A stretch of 64,000 nucleotides of DNA from Clostridium sp. Marseille-Q2269 (GTDB lineage: Bacteria; Bacillota; Clostridia; Clostridiales; Clostridiaceae): the NCBI RefSeq assembly GCF_943736985.1, contig NZ_CALSFS010000002.1, positions 372,001 through 436,000 of the forward strand. The letters are read 5' to 3'. A program made the position numbers and the translations under genes. The notes under the pieces are model-generated. The model saw only the letters and a program-made list of their open reading frames with translations, had not been told where the DNA came from and ran no database searches. Positions within the stretch are counted from its first letter, which is position 1. Every line of letters begins with the position of its first letter. Positions 26 to 62,582 of this stretch are shown here, one piece after another.

Positions 26-1249
26 TTATCTTAATAATTGTAAAACACCTTGTGGTTGTTGATTAGCTTGTGCAAGCATTGCTTGTGCAGCTTGTTGAAG
101 AATGTTATTTTTAGAGAATGTCATCATTTCATTTGCCATGTCAACGTCTCTTACTCTTGATTCAGCTGCTTGTAAGTTCTCGCTTGATGTTCCTAAATTA
201 TTTATTGTATGTTCTAATCTATTTTGGTAAGCACCAAGTTTAGATCTTTCAGTTGATACTGTGTTTATAGCATTATTTAAAACTTCTATAGCATTTGTAG
301 CATTATCATGATTTGACACATCAAGAGCACTTTCTGATTCATTAGAGTCTGTTCCATTTGTAACTCCTTCTTTTGCAGTGAAAACAACACCTGCTGCTCC
401 TGTTTTTCCTGTTCCTAAAGATATTTTTAAAGCTTCTGATCTCATATCTTCAATTGTCATTGTGAAAGCTTGACCTTTGTTTGCACCAATTTGTAATGTA
501 GCTGAGAATTCTGTGCTTGGCATGTCATCTCCTATTTTTATCTCTTTTACTCCAGCTGTTGTTACAGTTACCGTACCTGAAGATGTTGGTTGAATAGAAT
601 CTTCGTGTCCTGCTTTTTGTTTTACAGTTATACCTTTAGTACCATCCGCAACAATATCATATTTAGCTTTTAAAGTAGCATTATTACCTAATTTTGTAAC
701 TAAATCTGCTAAATCCCCAGCTCCTTTTATAGTTTCACCATCTAATGTAAAGTCTTTTGTAGCATCTGCAATTGCTACTTTATATTCTCCTGCTTTTGCT
801 GCAACTACATCAGCTGCTGTTGCTTTTTTAACTCCACCATTTAACATTTTTTGAGTATTAAATTCAGTAGTGTTTCCTACTCTGTTTATTTCAGAAGTTA
901 ATTGATTTATTTCTTTTTGTATTTGATCTCTATCTTCTGTTGTGTTTGTATCATTTGATGCTTGAGTTGCAAGTTCTCTCATTCTTTGAAGAATTGAGTG
1001 AGTTTCGTTTAATGCACCTTCTGCAGTTTGTATCATTGATATACCATCTTGAGCATTTCTTGATGCTTGATCAAGACCTCTAACTTGTGCTCTCATTTTT
1101 TCTGAGATAGCTAGTCCTGCTGCATCATCTCCAGCTCTGTTTATTCTTAAACCTGAGCTTAATTTTTCCATTGATTTTCCTGCGCTTCTTACATTACCCA
1201 TCATATTTCTATGAGCGTTCATTGCATTCATGTTATGATTGATTATCAT
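26..1249 (-). CDS. fliC: Flagellin (filament subunit)
   Basis: Structural flagellin of about 407 residues. The N-terminal D0/D1 region (starting [15 protein letters not shown], with the [21 protein letters not shown] core) and the C-terminal D1/D0 region ([30 protein letters not shown] to the LLQQPQGVLQLLR-like end) are both present. Between them, roughly residues 140-300 form a variable domain rich in Thr, Ala and Lys. I moved the start 16 codons inside the longest ORF, because an AAGGAGGAATT ribosome binding site (1254-1264) sits just before the ATG at 1249 and the protein then begins like other flagellins. The longer ORF would begin inside a leader hairpin. The termini are nearly identical to those of the protease flagellin upstream, so the two are paralogues. 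A sigma-D-type promoter lies about 170 bases upstream and a CsrA-type hairpin lies in the leader. Confidence 0.96.
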   Translation of the reverse strand: MIINHNMNAMNAHRNMMGNVRSAGKSMEKLSSGLRINRAGDDAAGLAISEKMRAQVRGLDQASRNAQDGISMIQTAEGALNETHSILQRMRELATQASNDTNTTEDRDQIQKEINQLTSEINRVGNTTEFNTQKMLNGGVKKATAADVVAAKAGEYKVAIADATKDFTLDGETIKGAGDLADLVTKLGNNATLKAKYDIVADGTKGITVKQKAGHEDSIQPTSSGTVTVTTAGVKEIKIGDDMPSTEFSATLQIGANKGQAFTMTIEDMRSEALKISLGTGKTGAAGVVFTAKEGVTNGTDSNESESALDVSNHDNATNAIEVLNNAINTVSTERSKLGAYQNRLEHTINNLGTSSENLQAAESRVRDVDMANEMMTFSKNNILQQAAQAMLAQANQQPQGVLQLLR

Positions 1250-1253
1250 TTTA

Positions 1254-1297
1254 AATTCCTCCTTGAGTTTTAAATTGAAATGAGCATCCTTGCTCAT
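1254..1297 (-). promoter_or_regulatory. Flagellin leader with paired CsrA-type sites
   Basis: The leader holds a perfect 7-bp hairpin at 1280-1297 (arms ATGAGCA/TGCTCAT) with AGGA as the loop, so it displays GCAAGGATGC. A second CAAGGAGG overlaps the Shine-Dalgarno (around 1258-1265). The two GGA motifs are about 27 nt apart. CsrA of Bacillus binds the hag leader at a GGA hairpin plus an SD-overlapping site. That CsrA does the same here is inference, supported by csrA and fliW at 7418-8067 and by the same arrangement in the second flagellin gene. Confidence 0.72.
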
Positions 1298-1426
1298 TTT
1301 TTTATTTTAAGCATATAGCTTAATTGCAATTTCTTTGTTCATATTATAATACTATATTAAAACATAACTCTTAGATATGATTAAAATATAATATTTATAA
1401 ATTAGTTTATACTAATCATATTTTTT

Positions 1427-1453
1427 ATATCGGAATATAAAAACAATACTTTA
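1427..1453 (-). promoter_or_regulatory. Sigma-D (sigma-28) promoter of fliC
   Basis: On the minus strand TAAA (1453-1450) is followed after 16 bases by CCGATAT (1433-1427), a near-consensus flagellar sigma-D promoter. Transcription would start near 1420, giving a leader of about 170 nt. The same 16-base spacing recurs in the two other candidate sigma-D promoters of this window. Confidence 0.82.
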
Positions 1454-1824
1454 TATTTAAACTGAAATTTCTTATATATTTTTAAAATACCTAAAACATT
1501 GTGTTCATAAATTAATTCATATTAAATACCCTTTATATATAACCTTAAATTTCTCATATGCTTTTTAATATCTAAAATATTATATTTTTAATATAATTAT
1601 AATATGATAAATTACTTTAAATTAAATACATTATATATATCGATATATCACTATAATACTTTACATTAAAATTAAAAAATTTTACATAAATGTATTAAAA
1701 TTTATATGCTAAATTCCATATACTAAACTACCCAAACTCTACAAATATTTAAAACAAAGCAACTTCTCTTTTTAATTCAAGTTAAAAAGATTAATTAAAT
1801 AAATTTTAAAATCTATAAATTTAT
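1454..1824. other. AT-rich spacer between the two flagellin genes
   Basis: No ORF with a ribosome binding site was seen. A 9-bp AT-rich hairpin (arms TCTTTTTAA/TTAAAAAGA, 1767-1790) lies just downstream of the protease flagellin. It could be a weak terminator, but it lacks a clear U-run after the stem. Nothing else stands out. Confidence 0.4.
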
Positions 1825-3660
1825 TTATCTCAATAATTGAAGTATTCCTTGTGGTTGTTGATTAGCTTGTGCAAGCATTGCTTGTGCAGCTTGTTGAAGA
1901 ATATTATTTTTAGAGAATGTCATCATTTCTTGTGCCATATCAACATCTCTTATTCTACTTTCAGATGCTTGTAAGTTTTCACTTGATGTTCCTAAATTGT
2001 TTATTGTATGTTCTAATCTATTTTGGTAAGCACCAAGCTTTGCTCTTTCTGAGGATACCTTATTTATAGCATTGTTTATTATATCTATTGCATTGGTTCC
2101 ATTTTCATGATTTGATAAATCTAATGCGCTTTCAATCTGATTATTATCATTTCCATTTGTAACTTCTGCTTTAGTAGTAAAGGCTCCCCCTACAATGCCT
2201 GCTCCTTTTTGAGATATTCCTAAAGATTCTGCCCTCATATCTCCAATTAACATACTAAATGCTTGTCCTTTATTCGCACCTATTTGTAGATTTATTCCTT
2301 TTAATCTTGATGGATCATCCCATTCTATTTCAAAACCTGCTAAATTTTCTATGCCTACTGGAAGATTTCCTACATTACTCACTTCTTTAATGATATCTTG
2401 TGCACTTATTTCATTTGCTCCACCACTATCTTTTCCAAGAACTGATCCTGTATCCACATTGGTTAAGTCCACATCTGCTTCTGTTTTCATAGTAGCTATA
2501 TCTTTTACTGCTGCTTTAAATTTAGCTATAAAATCTGCTACATCATTAAATTTAGTTACTGTTGCTTTAGTAACATCTTGTAGTGCATCACTTAATGTTT
2601 TGTCTTGATTATTAAGATCCTTTAAATAATCAAATATAGCTTTAATTCCTCCTGCAGCATCAAGTTGTTTATCTAAATACCTAACCGCTAAGTAAGCTGC
2701 AGAGTATTCGTCACTTCCAGCATTTTGAGGCCAATTTATACCATTTCCTATTTTAGCTACTACAGCAGCTACACTTCCTAGTGATTTTATACTTTGATCC
2801 AATCTTTCATCTGCACCATGCACAAATTCTGCTGTACCTTCTTTAAACCAAGTTTCCAGTTCTCCAAAGTTCATAGTCTGAGACATTATAGCATGAGTAA
2901 GCTCATGAGCTATAATTCTGTCATTATAAACTGGACCCTTTCCACCATCTTTGTTTGTATTTAGATTTAAAGGTTTCATAGCATCCATGTTTATATGTAA
3001 CTCTAACAAAGCTCCCTTTCCTGTTAGTCCAGTTGGACTTGTAGGATCTTTTACATAAGATGCATTTACAAGAGCTGCTGTATTTCCTAATCCTTCATCT
3101 AATACTACTTTTATTTTAGTGCCATTGGGAACTTTTATTCCATAACTATCTTCTACAAGTTTAGACCCTCCTTGAATCCACCAACTTTTTAATGCTTTTA
3201 GCACATCTTCTTTTTCTTGTTTAGTTGATGATCCTGATCCTAAAGATCCATCTAGCACCTTTTGTGTGTTGAATTCAGTTGTATTTCCTATTCTGTTTAT
3301 TTCTGAAGTCAATTGATTAATTTCTTTTTGTATTTGTTGCCTATCCTCTTTTGTATTTGTATCATTTGCCCCTTGAGTTGCAAGTTCTCTCATCCTTTGA
3401 AGTATTGAATGAGTTTCGTTTAATGCACCTTCTGCTGTCTGTATCATTGAAATACCATCTTGTGCATTTCTTGATGCTTGATCAAGCCCCCTAACTTGTG
3501 CTCTCATTTTTTCTGATATAGCAAGTCCTGCCGCATCATCCCCAGCTCTGTTTATTCGAAGTCCTGAACTTAATTTTTCCATGGATTTTCCTGCGCTTCT
3601 TACGTTGCTCATCATATTTCTGTGAGCATTCATTGCATTCATGTTGTGATTGATTATCAT
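1825..3660 (-). CDS. Protease flagellin (flagellinolysin type)
   Basis: A 611-residue flagellin whose variable domain is replaced by a zinc metalloprotease. Residues 1 to about 140 and about 455-611 are flagellin D0/D1 halves, almost identical to those of the neighbouring fliC. The insert contains HELTH at residues 252-256 and WFKEGTAEF at 271-279. HExxH followed by EGTAEF is the gluzincin pattern of clostridial collagenases (family M9), so H252 and H256 are probable zinc ligands, E253 the catalytic base and E274 the third ligand by analogy. Proteolytic flagellins of this architecture (flagellinolysins) are described from Clostridium haemolyticum and relatives, where they polymerise into filaments and display proteolytic activity. 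The start is supported by AAGGAGGAATT just upstream. Substrate and activity here are not shown by sequence. Confidence 0.93.
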
Positions 3661-28435: not shown

Positions 28436-28834
28436 TTATTGTAAATTTTCGTAGTAAGCAGTTACTTCTTCAAATTCTTTTTCATCTGGGTTAACAAGTT
28501 CAACTTCATCCCCTTGACCTTCTTCTCTGAATAAGTATACTGAATTATTTTCTGGATTTTGTACTAATGCATATACGCTGTCTTTATATTCAAATTCTTC
28601 TATTACTTCACAAGTAACAGCATTTCCATTTTCATCTTGTAAGTCTACAAGAATTGTATCACCGCATTCTTCATCTTCGCATCCGCAACCACAATTATCC
28701 TCATGGCTATCTGTACAACCGCAACCGCAGTGATCTTCATGGTTATCACCACAACCACAACCGCAAGTATCTTTTTCTATTTCTTCTTCGTGGCCACAAC
28801 CGCAACCACAACTATTTATTTTTTCATCTTTCAT
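28436..28834 (-). CDS. Cys-rich CGCGC-repeat protein with DUF1292 domain
   Basis: 132 residues. The N-terminus has four CGCGC clusters at residues 9, 24, 36 and 48, separated by His/Asp/Glu-rich spacers (12-residue period for the last three), giving 13 cysteines in the first 57 residues. Residues about 60-130 match the DUF1292 family (TILVDLQDENGNAVTCEVIEEFEYKDSVYALVQ). DUF1292 proteins of Bacilli usually lack such a head. The Cys/His/acidic head looks like a metal-binding module, which is inference. RBS CAGGAGATTTT; own terminator follows. No signal peptide. Confidence 0.82.
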   Translation of the reverse strand: MKDEKINSCGCGCGHEEEIEKDTCGCGCGDNHEDHCGCGCTDSHEDNCGCGCEDEECGDTILVDLQDENGNAVTCEVIEEFEYKDSVYALVQNPENNSVYLFREEGQGDEVELVNPDEKEFEEVTAYYENLQ

Positions 28835-45907: not shown

Positions 45908-46066
45908 ATTTAGTATATAATATTTCTATTATAATTATCTATTATATAAACTTTATAAAAAAACTAAAAATCATCCTATTTAAATCTATAATAATTTTTA
46001 AAATTCTTTTAACTATTATAATAATTTATTTTCCTCTATTATACTAGTTCCTTGAAAATACTATAC

Positions 46067-46279
46067 TAACTTTTTGTGCTAGTTAAAGTAGCTCTAGGAA
46101 TCATATTTTGATAAGCTAAACTTTGAGCCAATCTTACTTACAATTATATTAGTGTTTTAAAAGTTCCGTGAGCTGAATTCAACTAGCACAACAGATTATA
46201 CTAATATTTTCATATTTAAAAATTTATCTCTTTAAAAAAGTTATTTCAATATAAAAAAATTAACTAGCACAAAAAGTTA
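46067..46279. repeat. 213-bp segment bounded by 20-bp inverted repeats
   Basis: A 20-base sequence (46067-46086, core CTTTTTGTGCTAGTT) is repeated exactly in inverted orientation at 46260-46279, with a shorter third copy (AACTAGCACAA) near 46184. The right repeat contains the stop codon of the M16 peptidase. The interior has no ORF. It looks like a MITE or insertion-sequence relic, or a very long hairpin acting as a terminator. The region 45908-46066 shows nothing else. Confidence 0.65.
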
Positions 46280-52776: not shown

Positions 52777-54732
52777 CTAAAATTCTGCATATTTATATAA
52801 ATAATTTTTTCGTGGTTCTACTACGTCCCCCATAAGTAAAGATACCATTTTTTCAGCCTTTGCTGCATCTTCTATTGTTATTCTTTGAAGAGTTCTTGTT
52901 TCAGGATTTAATGTAGTTTCCCATAATTGTTCTGGATTCATTTCTCCTAGACCTTTATATCTTTGAATTAAATATCCTTTGCCAATTTTCTTTTTAGCTT
53001 TTTCTAGCTCTTCATCATTATAGCAATACATTGACCTTTCACCTTTTTTATCTTTCTTATAAACTTTATATAAAGGTGGCATAGCTATATAAAGGTGTCC
53101 ATTGGCCACTAATGGTTTCATATATCTATATATATATGTCATCCATAAAGTCCTAATATGATATCCATCTACATCTGCATCACTTAATATTATTATTTTA
53201 TTATATTTTAAATCATCATCCTTATAATTTTCTAATACACCTGTTCCTATAGCAGTATTAAATATTTTTAACTCTTCACTACCTAATACGTTTTCTATCT
53301 TTTGTTTTTCAGTATTCATAATCTTACCCTTAGAAGGCATTATACTTTGGAATCTTCTGTCTCTTGCTTGTTTTGCAGAACCTCCTGCTGAATCTCCTTC
53401 CACTACTATAAATTCTGTAGTATTTGAATCTCTCAGCGTGCAAACAGCTATTTTACCTGCTAATGGTGCTAATCCCTTACCTATCTTTTTCTTTTCCGCT
53501 TCGTTTATTTTTTTTATTTTCTCTCTTCTAGCCGCAGCAGCTAAAGCATTATTTATAATTAATGTAGAAGTTTCTTTATTATCCTCTATCCATTCTAAAA
53601 ATTTAGTATAAGCTAAATCATTCATCATGGTATAGGCTTCATTGTTTCCAAGTTTAGTTTTTGTTTGCCCTTCAAATACAGGATTACTTATTTTAATTCT
53701 AACTATAACTGTAATTCCCTCTCTAAGATCAGATCCATCAAATTCTTTATCTTTTTCTTTTATTAAATTTAGTTTCTTAGCTCCTTCTTTAAAAGCTCTA
53801 GTCATACCTGTTTTAAAGCCTGTTTCATGTGTACCAGCCTCTGTAGTTGGGATGTTATTAACATAACTGGCTATGTTTTCTGTTGATGAATCTGTAAATT
53901 GAAAACATATTTCCCCTTCCATTTTTAAATTATTTATTTCCTTTTCTCCCTCAAATAATACTGCAGGATTATGTATTGGGGTTTTACTCTCATTTAAATA
54001 ATCTATAAAATCTAAAAGTCCTCTTTCAGAATGGTACTCCTTTATTTCAGGTTCATCTTTTCTATTGTCTATTAGTTTTAATCTTATTCCTTTATTTTGA
54101 AATGCTAATTCTTGCAATCTTTCATCTATAACATCAAATTTAAAATCTACAGTTGAAAATACTTCTTTATCTGGTTTAAAAGTGACTTTTGTACCAGTTT
54201 TATCTGTAGTCCCTATAACTTTAAGTTTTGTTACAGGTGTTCCTGGCATTTTCTTATTAACCTTTTTATCTAAAGCATACTCAAATCTTTGTTTATATAT
54301 GTTGCTATTTTGATAAACTTCAACTTCTGTCCATTCTGATAAAGCATTAACTACTGATGCTCCTACACCATGAAGACCTCCTGAAGTTTTATATATTGAA
54401 TTATTAAACTTTCCTCCGGTATGTAGTTCTGTAAAAACCATCTCCACACCAGACTTCTTTTTAATGGGATGTATCCCTGTAGGAATACCTCTTCCATTAT
54501 CTATAACTGTAACACTTTTATCTTCATTTAATATAACCTCTGCCGTATCTCCATATCCATTTGAAATTTCATCAATTGCATTATCTAGTATCTCCCAAAT
54601 GCAATGATGAAGTCCCTTGGTTCCTGTGGACCCTATATACATTCCTGGTCTCACTCTTACAGGCTCTAATTTTTCCAAAGAGGTCAACTTGGTAACATCA
54701 TAATCTTCTATGTTATCTACTCTTTCCTCCAT
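52777..54732 (-). CDS. parE: DNA topoisomerase IV subunit B
   Basis: 651 residues, GHKL ATPase plus TOPRIM. EPVRVRPGMYIGSTGTKGLHHCIWEILDNAIDE (ATP site Asn), DNGRGIPTGIHP, GGLHGVGASVVNALS, the QTKTKLGN transducer lysine, and TOPRIM EGDSAGGSAKQARDRRFQ with DADVDGYHIRTL. It pairs with parC downstream for decatenation. GyrB is very similar; the assignment rests on pairing with a GyrA-box-less ParC away from dnaA genes. Confidence 0.92.
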   Translation of the reverse strand: MEERVDNIEDYDVTKLTSLEKLEPVRVRPGMYIGSTGTKGLHHCIWEILDNAIDEISNGYGDTAEVILNEDKSVTVIDNGRGIPTGIHPIKKKSGVEMVFTELHTGGKFNNSIYKTSGGLHGVGASVVNALSEWTEVEVYQNSNIYKQRFEYALDKKVNKKMPGTPVTKLKVIGTTDKTGTKVTFKPDKEVFSTVDFKFDVIDERLQELAFQNKGIRLKLIDNRKDEPEIKEYHSERGLLDFIDYLNESKTPIHNPAVLFEGEKEINNLKMEGEICFQFTDSSTENIASYVNNIPTTEAGTHETGFKTGMTRAFKEGAKKLNLIKEKDKEFDGSDLREGITVIVRIKISNPVFEGQTKTKLGNNEAYTMMNDLAYTKFLEWIEDNKETSTLIINNALAAAARREKIKKINEAEKKKIGKGLAPLAGKIAVCTLRDSNTTEFIVVEGDSAGGSAKQARDRRFQSIMPSKGKIMNTEKQKIENVLGSEELKIFNTAIGTGVLENYKDDDLKYNKIIILSDADVDGYHIRTLWMTYIYRYMKPLVANGHLYIAMPPLYKVYKKDKKGERSMYCYNDEELEKAKKKIGKGYLIQRYKGLGEMNPEQLWETTLNPETRTLQRITIEDAAKAEKMVSLLMGDVVEPRKNYLYKYAEF

Positions 54733-60305: not shown

Positions 60306-61592
60306 CTACGAAATTTTTTGTTTTTTATAATTACATAAATTAATTCTAAATAATTTCATACTGAGCGCTTCCAAATTAAGTTTATAATAATAAATCCAAT
60401 TTTCTACTATATCCATTCCTACAGCATTATCTTTAGTTACTGTACAAACTTCTCCACCTTCTTTATGAACTTTATATATTCCTTTCTGGTTATTTCCTGA
60501 AAAATATATATTATCAGCGGTACAAATTATGCCTCTTGAGCAATCTTTTTCACATATTTTTTTTCTTCCTAATCCATCTATATTTATTCTATATAAATAG
60601 GTTTGATTATTATCCATATCCTTTGCATAAAAAATATAATTATTATCTATTACAGCATTTACACAACTATCTTTATTTAGTTTTTCTTCATAGTCTCCAT
60701 CCAGTGTTATTCTATATAAATTATTACCTAATTCTTCATTAATATAATATATCCATCCATGCTTAATCTTCATAAAAATTCTGCTAGAGTAATTATTTAT
60801 TTTTTTCACATCTTGTCCATCTAATCTTATTCTATATATAGAGTAATTATCATCTACATTTAAATAGTAAAGAAAAGGACCTTGTATTATAACATTTTTA
60901 CCTTTTATATTAAGACTTGTTTTATTAGATCCATCTTTTTTTATTCTGTATATTTTGTAATTATCTTTACTAAATGATCCTATGTATTCTGAATAAAATA
61001 TATAGTTATCTGAAAAGGCTATAGAGTCCACAGTAGCATCTGTTAAACGTACTCTAGAATTTCCATCTTTTTTTATTCTATATAGATAATTTTCTTCATT
61101 TGTTCCTACATTGTTTATATAGTATATCCATTGATCATTTATCCAAATACTACTTGCAAAATCATCACAAAGCTTTATATCTATGGATCCATCAATGTTA
61201 ACCTTTCTTATTGATCCATGTGGATTACAATCCATATATGTATAAATTTTTTCATTGCTAGTATAATAGATCCAGTTATCTTCTCTCACTACTCTTGTAC
61301 CATTATTTTGTATTATACCCTTGTTTAAACAAAACTTTATATTGTTTAATTGTTTAAAAGCCTTTCCACTTGTAGAATATATAGAATCTTTAAACTCTAA
61401 TATGTACTCATTATTAATACACTTCTCATCTGTTTTTATCCTTATATTAAGTATATTTTTTTGTACTACTTTTATATTAAAATTCACTTTTTTCCCATGT
61501 GTATCTGTTATAACTATATTGTTTGAGTGTATGGATTTATCATCTATTTCCTCATTAAATTTCAAATTCAAATCTACATATTTATCTTCCAT
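60306..61592 (-). CDS. DUF5050-like beta-propeller protein with Ig-like head
   Basis: 428 residues, no signal peptide. Residues about 5-90 resemble a bacterial Ig-like domain of the SbsA/Big_5 kind (LNLKFNEEIDDKSIHSNNIVI; NEYILEFKDSIYSTSGKAF). The rest is made of six to seven repeats with the pattern WIYY...LYRIxxDG (for example NWIYYTSNEKIY; YLYRIKKDGNSRVRLT; YKIYRIKKDGSNKT), typical of DUF5050 propellers. Function unknown. RBS AGGGAG lies about 14 bases before the ATG, which is long. Confidence 0.8.
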   Translation of the reverse strand: MEDKYVDLNLKFNEEIDDKSIHSNNIVITDTHGKKVNFNIKVVQKNILNIRIKTDEKCINNEYILEFKDSIYSTSGKAFKQLNNIKFCLNKGIIQNNGTRVVREDNWIYYTSNEKIYTYMDCNPHGSIRKVNIDGSIDIKLCDDFASSIWINDQWIYYINNVGTNEENYLYRIKKDGNSRVRLTDATVDSIAFSDNYIFYSEYIGSFSKDNYKIYRIKKDGSNKTSLNIKGKNVIIQGPFLYYLNVDDNYSIYRIRLDGQDVKKINNYSSRIFMKIKHGWIYYINEELGNNLYRITLDGDYEEKLNKDSCVNAVIDNNYIFYAKDMDNNQTYLYRINIDGLGRKKICEKDCSRGIICTADNIYFSGNNQKGIYKVHKEGGEVCTVTKDNAVGMDIVENWIYYYKLNLEALSMKLFRINLCNYKKQKIS

Positions 61593-61644
61593 AATTTAAA
61601 ATTACACTCCCTTATATTTATTTCATAATTTAATACATATTATC

Positions 61645-61672
61645 ATTAGTTATTTCAGTTTAAATAACTAAT
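61645..61672. repeat. Hairpin or operator upstream of the propeller gene
   Basis: A perfect 11-bp inverted repeat (ATTAGTTATTT/AAATAACTAAT) with a six-base centre, about 55 bases before the propeller gene start. No U-run follows on either strand, so an operator or leader structure is more likely than a terminator. Confidence 0.45.
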
Positions 61673-61740
61673 GTATATACTATTAATTATACACATTATT
61701 TCTATATTACTCTATTAAAAGAAGTAATTTATTATTTTTA

Positions 61741-61878
61741 AAAAAATAATAAAAAGCAGTGCATGCTCAATATTTATATAGAAATGATTTTGATAACTAT
61801 TTTTCAACTATACAACATTCTGTCTGGAGGACAGCTATCCTATATAAAATATTAAACTATGCACTGTTTTATGCTTTA
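61741..61878 (-). ncRNA. Candidate structured small RNA, about 135 nt
   Basis: Read on the minus strand: an 8-bp closing stem CAGTGCAT/ATGCACTG, a small internal loop, a 13-bp stem (AATATT-TATATAG with one bulge) and an apical region with two hairpins, CTGTC-CTCCA-GACAG and AATGTTG paired with CAA..CATT, i.e. a plausible three-way junction. The closing stem is followed by CTTTTTATTATTTTTTT. Its own promoter lies at 61885-61912. No ORF with a ribosome binding site is present. I do not recognise it as 6S, SRP, tmRNA or a known riboswitch. It could instead be an elaborate flavodoxin terminator or a leader for the propeller gene. Confidence 0.55.
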
Positions 61879-61884
61879 TGTGTA

Positions 61885-61912
61885 ATTATAAACTATTAAC
61901 TTGTTTTAACAA
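61885..61912 (-). promoter_or_regulatory. Sigma-A promoter of the candidate small RNA
   Basis: On the minus strand TTGTTA (61912-61907), 16 bases, TATAAT (61890-61885). It lies in the short gap between the flavodoxin stop and the structured element, with a start near 61878, immediately before the closing stem. Confidence 0.65.
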
Positions 61913-61928
61913 TATGTTACTTTTTAAA

Positions 61929-62348
61929 CTATATTAATTTTTTTGCAAAATTTTTGCACTCTTCTAAAGTTGAGTCATCTGGTTCTCCTTGATGTATTAA
62001 GCTTTCAACCTTTATTTCTGCATCATAACTCTCCATTCTTTCTTCCCAATCTCTCATCCACTGGCCATCTCCCCAGCCATAGGATCCAAATAATCCTACC
62101 TTTTTACCTTTAACTATATTTCTTATGGAATCTACAAAAGGTTCCATCTCTCCTTCTTCTAATACCTCATCTCCCATAGATGGACAACCTAATATTAATA
62201 CTTCTGCTTCCTCTACATCTTTTGTAGTAGCATCAGATACAGATAATAGTTTTACTTCTGCTTCAGATTCTAATCCACCTTTAATAGCTTCAGCCATTCT
62301 TTCTGTATTTCCTGTACCGCTCCAATAAATTATATTTACCTTTGCCAT
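61929..62348 (-). CDS. Flavodoxin
   Basis: 139 residues; small FMN electron carrier. The phosphate-binding loop is YWSGTGNTERMAEAI (residues 8-22), and the second FMN loop GCPSMGDEVLEEGEMEPF; GLFGSYGWGDGQWMRDWEERM completes the fold. It may accept electrons from the pyruvate oxidoreductase encoded at 32009-35587. The start is set at ATG 62348, preceded by GAGGGAGTGATATA; the longest ORF adds 12 residues before the normal flavodoxin start. Confidence 0.95.
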   Translation of the reverse strand: MAKVNIIYWSGTGNTERMAEAIKGGLESEAEVKLLSVSDATTKDVEEAEVLILGCPSMGDEVLEEGEMEPFVDSIRNIVKGKKVGLFGSYGWGDGQWMRDWEERMESYDAEIKVESLIHQGEPDDSTLEECKNFAKKLI

Positions 62349-62582
62349 TATATCACTCCCTCGTTCATCGAAAAAGATTTTCATTTACAATTAATATTAT
62401 ATATCATTTTCTTTTTTTGTCAATATATATTCTAAAATAAATCCATAGAAATTAGATAAAATTTATAGGTGTATTGTATTATATACACCTATTTTATATA
62501 CTACTTTATATAAGCACCGCAAATATAATCTTAATATCTTACACATTATTCTAAGATCTTGTTCATAATTTAAAATTAATAT
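62349..62582. other. Flavodoxin upstream region
   Basis: AT-rich, no ORF. A hairpin at 62465-62492 (ATAGGTGTAT/ATACACCTAT) lies about 120 bases before the flavodoxin start. It lacks a U-run on the minus strand, but TTTATATA follows on the plus strand. Confidence 0.4.

What the first reader, a model, noticed from the sequence alone, without database searches (positions are those of the whole stretch)
61741..61912. Possible new structured small RNA with its own promoter and terminator
In the 336-base gap between flavodoxin and a propeller gene, the minus strand carries TTGTTA-N16-TATAAT. Six or seven bases later begins an element of about 135 nt with a closing stem (CAGTGCAT/ATGCACTG), a second long stem, two apical hairpins and then a T-rich run. 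One apical loop exposes CTCCA inside TCCTCC, which could pair with Shine-Dalgarno sequences. The promoter, structure and terminator fit within the gap, and the element matches no RNA family I know. A mere flavodoxin terminator would not need such size.
Basis: partly seen in the sequence, partly recalled or inferred. Interest (0 to 1): 0.72.

Follow-up and report, generated by a model that had tools for sequence, protein, structure and literature searches.

The report
Oversized hairpin terminator, possible small RNA
Between a flavodoxin gene and its neighbour in an unidentified clostridium lies an unusually long RNA hairpin that looks like a transcription stop signal and may also be a small regulatory RNA, but no relative was found that would let either reading be tested.

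Summary
The sequence features are real. On the minus strand a TTGTTA-N16-TATAAT site lies upstream of a long hairpin (61866-61757) that ends in a T-rich run. Its arms pair at about -25 kcal/mol; 0 of 300 shuffles of the gap do as well. No Rfam family matches. The promoter is weak evidence: such sites are common by chance here. The two apical hairpins are one of several near-equal folds, and folding z-scores this good are common in the window's gaps. The outer rod has the shape of an ordinary long-stem terminator with an extra apical part: a model of the element picks up plain terminator-like hairpins elsewhere. No convincing homologue was found in 206 Clostridiaceae genomes or in 391 genomes sampled from the class (strict filters), and the ten closest genomes read do not show the same neighbours, so covariation could not be tested. 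Most likely it is the flavodoxin terminator, perhaps doubling as a species-restricted sRNA with its own promoter. Transcription and function are not shown.

The parts
61885..61912 (-). promoter-like site TTGTTA-N16-TATAAT (10 of 12); presumed start near 61878
   Evidence: common class of match, expected often by chance
61757..61866 (-). long imperfect hairpin: arms 61866-61840 and 61781-61757 (27 and 25 nt), then a 10-nt bulge on the 3' side and an apical part with several near-equal folds
   Evidence: 0 of 200 and 0 of 300 shuffles as good
61820..61834 (-). apical hairpin CTGTC-CTCCA-GACAG; the loop is complementary to the core of Shine-Dalgarno sequences
   Evidence: the five loop bases are 70-97% unpaired in the predicted ensemble
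61740..61756 (-). C and then a T-rich run after the closing stem, with AAAA before the 5' arm: terminator-like ends
   Evidence: sequence; (7 T in 8 on the minus strand, 5 in 8 on the plus strand)
61929..62384 (-). flavodoxin gene upstream (likely start 62348), whose transcript needs an end here
   Evidence: PF00258, E 1.7e-16
60306..61592 (-).
   Evidence: PF16472, E 1.6e-45

Best explanation
The element is the transcription end point of the flavodoxin unit: an imperfect rod with arms of 25-27 nt, an A-tract before it and a U-rich run after it, carrying an apical domain of about 58 nt. RNA polymerase coming from flavodoxin, or starting at the promoter-like site at 61912-61885, would stop after the rod forms. 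From the local promoter this would release a ~135-nt RNA. The apical CUCC loop could then pair with Shine-Dalgarno sequences and block translation, as C-rich regions do in some Firmicutes sRNAs. Shown: the sequence parts and the strong predicted rod. Inferred: termination. Inferred and weaker: use of the local promoter, a stable short RNA, and any trans-acting role.
For: Arm pairing -24.9 kcal/mol in the gap against a shuffle mean of -13.8 and a best of -20.7, 0 of 300 reaching it. An 8-bp long-range closing stem with at least 4 G/C and a T-tract is expected 0.06 times over the window's 31 gaps, both strands, and is seen at this place alone (it counts on both of its strands). The T-run follows on the minus strand (7 in 8 against 5 in 8 on the plus strand). 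A model of the element picks up plain long-stem hairpins without the apical part, the best at E 5.4e-6. The only minus-strand promoter-like site of 9 of 12 or better in the gap sits directly upstream. CCTCC occurs 8 times on the minus strand of the 64 kb, this one included, so one inside 125 nt is uncommon, roughly 1.6% (my arithmetic). An sRNA with its own promoter plus read-through from an upstream gene is documented for RsaG and RsaE (PMC5826253, passages).
Against: The promoter class is mostly chance. No homologue, so no covariation test. Folding z-scores as good are common in this window's gaps, and in that survey the plus strand of the element scored better than the minus strand. Folded within a longer leader, the minimum-energy structure opens the rod, while the centroid keeps it. 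Another gap (45908-46276) holds a stronger long-range hairpin without a T-tract after it, so such hairpins need not be terminators here. The UCCC motif itself is absent. A CUCC loop would fit very many genes: 25 of 49 starts examined have GGAG within 22 nt upstream, and the two neighbouring genes are weak partners (-8.6 and -6.8).
Confidence: 0.45

Rival explanations
1. Only a flavodoxin 3' UTR and terminator: the local promoter is a chance match and the apical insert has no separate role.
For: Promoter-like sites of this score are frequent (55 observed, 37.8 expected). The rod and T-tract alone look like ordinary terminators. Flavodoxin needs an end here and has a perfect promoter match of its own at 62423-62396.
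Against: The hairpin is longer than the compact terminators recognisable in the window (about 20-65 nt, read by eye from the brackets). The promoter-like site is well placed.
Confidence: 0.33
2. A palindromic DNA element (a MITE-like insertion or its remnant) that happens to lie in the gap.
For: The arms are long inverted repeats around a core of about 58 nt. An apparently unrelated hairpin of similar size lies at 46050-46215 in the same window.
Against: No second copy in the window; only short chance-level matches in plasmids and phages; no full-length match in searched genomes. No target duplication seen by eye at the ends. The T-tract and strand asymmetry are not explained. The source genome itself could not be searched.
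Confidence: 0.14
3. A cis-acting leader or attenuator of the DUF5050 gene, transcribed from the 61912 site.
For: No other minus-strand site of 9 of 12 or better lies in the gap; the element lies 5' of that gene. The minimum-energy fold of the 319-nt leader opens the rod, and one search lists a 24-nt inverted repeat (79%) that pairs 61776-61799, part of the 3' arm, with 61684-61707 downstream.
Against: The rod starts about 12 nt after the presumed start, leaving little room for an upstream sensor. As single duplexes the arms prefer each other (-25.3) to anything downstream (-11.7 and -13.8), and the leader's centroid keeps the rod. A separate exact TATAAT lies at 61691-61686, nearer the DUF5050 gene (read). 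No Rfam riboswitch match.
Confidence: 0.08

Closest known systems
RsaG/RsaE-type Staphylococcus sRNA genes (own promoter plus read-through from the upstream gene)
   Same: Layout: upstream gene, local promoter, RNA of about 100-225 nt, terminator (PMC5826253, passages seen).
   Different: No shared sequence or family was shown; transcription is unproven here; the UCCC motif is absent.
IsrR, an iron-sparing sRNA with C-rich regions
   Same: Single-stranded C-rich loop complementary to Shine-Dalgarno sequences (PMC9410917, passages seen).
   Different: IsrR has three C-rich regions, two Fur boxes and a separate canonical terminator. Here there is one such loop and no convincing Fur box: the best in the gap matches 13 of 19 of a recalled consensus, and 37 places on the window's plus strand match 13 or more.
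Ordinary intrinsic terminators of clostridia
   Same: A-tract, rod, T-tract; picked up by a model of the element.
   Different: Those have loops of a few nt; this one carries an apical domain of about 58 nt.

Membership tests
bona fide sRNA gene (definition of PMC5826253, passages) | own promoter | tested here: inconclusive
   10 of 12 site well placed, but the class is common by chance
bona fide sRNA gene (definition of PMC5826253, passages) | own transcription terminator | tested here: inconclusive
   long-range rod plus T-tract; no short-loop hairpin with a T-tract of 6 in 8 in the gap
bona fide sRNA gene (definition of PMC5826253, passages) | discrete transcript without antisense overlap | not testable with these tools
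   no transcript data for this organism
Firmicutes C-rich-loop sRNAs | UCCC motif in an unpaired region (present in 48% of the sRNAs of PMC5826253, so not strictly required) | tested here: not met
   loop is CUCCA within UCCUCC; UCCC does not occur in the element (sequence)
canonical intrinsic terminator | short-loop G+C-rich hairpin directly before a T-tract | tested here: not met
   T-tract present, but the closing stem spans 94 nt
any Rfam family | score at or above the curated cut-off | tested here: not met
   0 matches in the window; two chance-level matches in the gap, E 2.1 and 3.6
MITE | several copies with target duplications | tested here: inconclusive
   no second copy in 64 kb; the genome itself is not held
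transcription-attenuation leader | mutually exclusive antiterminator | tested here: inconclusive
   arms prefer each other as single duplexes, but the minimum-energy fold of the whole leader opens the rod while its centroid keeps it

The most novel reading that the evidence does not exclude
A species- or group-restricted sRNA, expressed from a promoter inside the flavodoxin 3' region, whose rod doubles as its terminator and whose apical CCUCC loop represses mRNAs by covering Shine-Dalgarno sequences, linking flavodoxin expression to wider control.
Probability: 0.22. Interest if true: 0.45.

Novelty: new member of a known kind. Interest (0 to 1): 0.22.

Why it matters
If transcribed, it would add one more candidate to the sRNAs of clostridia, where many are predicted (more than 200 in group I and II C. 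botulinum and 137 in C. tetani E88, as reported in PMC9229411, passages), and would be an example of a terminator whose rod carries a regulatory loop. If it is only a terminator, it is an unusually large but otherwise ordinary transcription end.

Tried and rejected
Homologues. Element DNA in 6 genomes (all 6 had only short AT-rich pieces, best E 9e-4; L001 was not searched). The gap's DNA in plasmids (8 records with partial matches, best E 2e-3), phages (7 records, best E 8e-3), and against the window and 128 loci (best other match 40 nt, E 5e-5; nhmmer found only the element itself and one match at E 5). Two patterns in viral contigs (none). The DUF5050 protein in 206 genomes (none at 1e-60, a strict limit), plasmids (one record, 32% identity) and viral contigs (none confirmed); flavodoxin in viral contigs (none confirmed). 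Antiporter DNA in 225 genomes of the order (6 with a match, at most 69% identity).

Structure model built from this one sequence: 0 of 206 and 0 of 391 genomes at E 0.1. In the genomes listed these scans scored at most 17 and 9 candidates each, so weak relatives can be missed. With laxer filters, 7 of 28 chosen genomes gave 8 matches at E 1 or better, which is no more than chance over 28 genomes, except one at E 5.4e-6. I viewed four of the 8: L145 (the E 5.4e-6 match), L146 and L147 are hairpins without the apical part; L148 (E 0.03, 102 nt) is a larger AT-rich fold without a clear T-run, expected about once by chance in 28 genomes, which I did not pursue. Of the 144 loci held I gave 76; 7 matches at E 1 or better came back, and I saw the alignments of 2, both hairpins without the apical part.

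Synteny. In ten stretches of 11-16.5 kb beside ParE from the ten best ParE matches, neither flavodoxin nor the DUF5050 protein was found; the protein of 55077 had relatives in 4 of 10, the deacetylase in 1 (38%), and both MATE proteins gave weak matches (22-26%) in 1.

Flavodoxin 3' ends. A first script was faulty because it tested the T-tract only at full stem extension. The repaired one found a short-loop terminator in 20 of 102 distinct downstream stretches (1 of 102 after one shuffle each; 2 of 30 among the genome-search loci). In several of the 11 stretches printed another reading frame seems to follow flavodoxin closely (by eye), so this comparison says little.

Considered. Fur or Rex control: no convincing site. 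A small peptide on the plus strand (30 aa at 61763): no Shine-Dalgarno sequence before it. Specific mRNA targets: the best duplex is with the start of the ParE-like gene at 54732 (-15.1), but half of the genes offer GGAG, so this is not evidence. Organism by solved structures: matches of the expected families, no identification.

Papers. Listings only: 40 papers with four of five terms, 20 listed; 2; 23, 10 listed; 3; 5; 0 with sRNA, flavodoxin, Clostridium and intrinsic terminator. Passages: PMC5826253, PMC9410917, PMC9229411. The clostridial sRNA survey PMC3025663 is not held, so whether this locus is among its predictions is unknown.

Full report
What was checked. The window is 27.7% GC with clostridial gene content (flagellar and chemotaxis genes, a ParE/ParC-like topoisomerase, flavodoxin; names partly from Pfam, partly recalled from the sequences). 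The organism was not identified: the closest ParE DNA among 200 searched Clostridiaceae genomes is 81% identical, and the closest flavodoxins found are 62-63% identical. The gap 61593-61928 lies between two minus-strand genes, a flavodoxin (PF00258) and a DUF5050 protein (PF16472).

The element. On the minus strand the order is: TTGTTA-N16-TATAAT (61912-61885), presumed start near 61878, AAAA, arm CAGTGCATAGTTTAATATTTTATATAG (61866-61840), an apical part of 58 nt, arm CTATATAAATATTGAGCATGCACTG (61781-61757), then C and a T-rich run to 61740. Folded as 146 nt, the minus strand gives -33.5 kcal/mol (z -4.14, 0 of 200 shuffles as good) and the plus strand -28.8 (z -3.81, 1 of 200). The 125-nt core on the minus strand gives -32.7 (z -4.66, 0 of 200). 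The two arms alone pair at -25.3. In 300 shuffles of the gap the best comparable long-range pairing was -20.7, against -24.9 in the real gap. The CUCCA loop bases are 70-97% unpaired in the ensemble.

How unusual it is. z-scores of -4 or lower occur in 61 of 760 overlapping gap windows, both strands counted, 60 shuffles each, so strong folding is ordinary here. The 30 best include the element's plus strand (rank 19) but not its minus strand. What stands out is the long-range pairing: among the 25 gaps of about 150 bases or more, this gap has the second strongest. The strongest, at 46050-46215, is a large hairpin of no evident sequence relation and without a T-tract after it. In one search I looked at 28 gene ends. 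The compact hairpins that I could recognise there by eye are about 20-65 nt long; several other ends gave long, weak AT-rich folds that I did not count as terminators, and the printed spans run up to 140 nt because of how the script extends them. The element has the lowest energy of the 28 (-32.9; next -30.4).

The promoter. The site matches 10 of 12 with an exact TATAAT, and it is the only minus-strand site of 9 of 12 or better in the gap. The window's gaps hold 55 sites of 10 of 12 or better against a mean of 37.8 (maximum 53) in 20 shuffles. The class is somewhat enriched, so some are real, but a single one cannot be taken as shown.

Relatives. Rfam gives nothing. A covariance model of this one sequence found nothing at E 0.1 in 206 Clostridiaceae genomes or in 391 genomes drawn from the class (the sets overlap to an unknown extent). 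Both scans used strict filters and scored few candidates per genome. With laxer filters on 28 chosen genomes there were 8 matches at E 1 or better in 7 genomes, no more than chance except one at E 5.4e-6. That one is a 61-nt hairpin with a T-run and no apical part; of the three others viewed, two are plain hairpins and one is a larger AT-rich fold at chance level. In 76 of the 144 loci then held there were seven weak matches, the best two of them hairpins without the apical part. The outer element is therefore terminator-like, and the apical domain is what is peculiar. In the ten closest genomes read, flavodoxin and the DUF5050 gene do not lie beside ParE as they do here.

Mechanism. The best-supported reading is transcription termination of the flavodoxin unit by the rod and T-run. 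A second product, a ~135-nt RNA from the local promoter, is plausible. An own promoter plus read-through is documented for RsaG and RsaE in Staphylococcus aureus, and 48% of the bona fide sRNAs listed there carry a UCCC motif (PMC5826253, passages). IsrR acts on mRNAs through C-rich regions (PMC9410917, passages). Here the loop is CUCC inside UCCUCC, not UCCC. CCTCC is rare on this strand (8 in 64 kb), which slightly favours a meaning, but 25 of 49 gene starts examined offer a GGAG partner, so no target can be named. A leader role for the DUF5050 gene is not excluded: the minimum-energy fold of the 319-nt leader opens the rod, its centroid keeps it, and a downstream partner for part of the 3' arm exists. 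Absence of homologues does not refute an sRNA: the S. [quoted passage not shown]

Verdict. The element is best filed as an oversized terminator hairpin and sRNA candidate, not as a new RNA class.

Noticed in passing
46050-46215: A second large long-range hairpin (35-nt arms, 77% complementary, 90 nt apart; z -5.16 on the minus strand, -4.36 on the plus strand) in the convergent gap 45908-46276, with an inverted 17-nt copy of its end at 46260-46276; no Rfam match near a cut-off, no plasmid match, no match at E 0.001 in 15 genomes, and no T-tract after the stem.
   Followed up: partly
61644-61673: Perfect 12-bp palindrome (arms 61644-61655 and 61662-61673) between an exact TATAAT at 61691-61686 (minus strand) and the start of the DUF5050 gene; it could be an operator or a 5' leader hairpin (read).
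   Followed up: no
62396-62423: Perfect 12 of 12 promoter match TTGACA-N16-TATAAT before the flavodoxin gene.
   Followed up: no
26-3660: Two tandem flagellin-like genes (423 and 611 aa) with nearly identical beginnings (name recalled from the sequence).
   Followed up: no
28436-28834: Small protein with a repeated cysteine-glycine motif before a DUF1292 domain.
   Followed up: no
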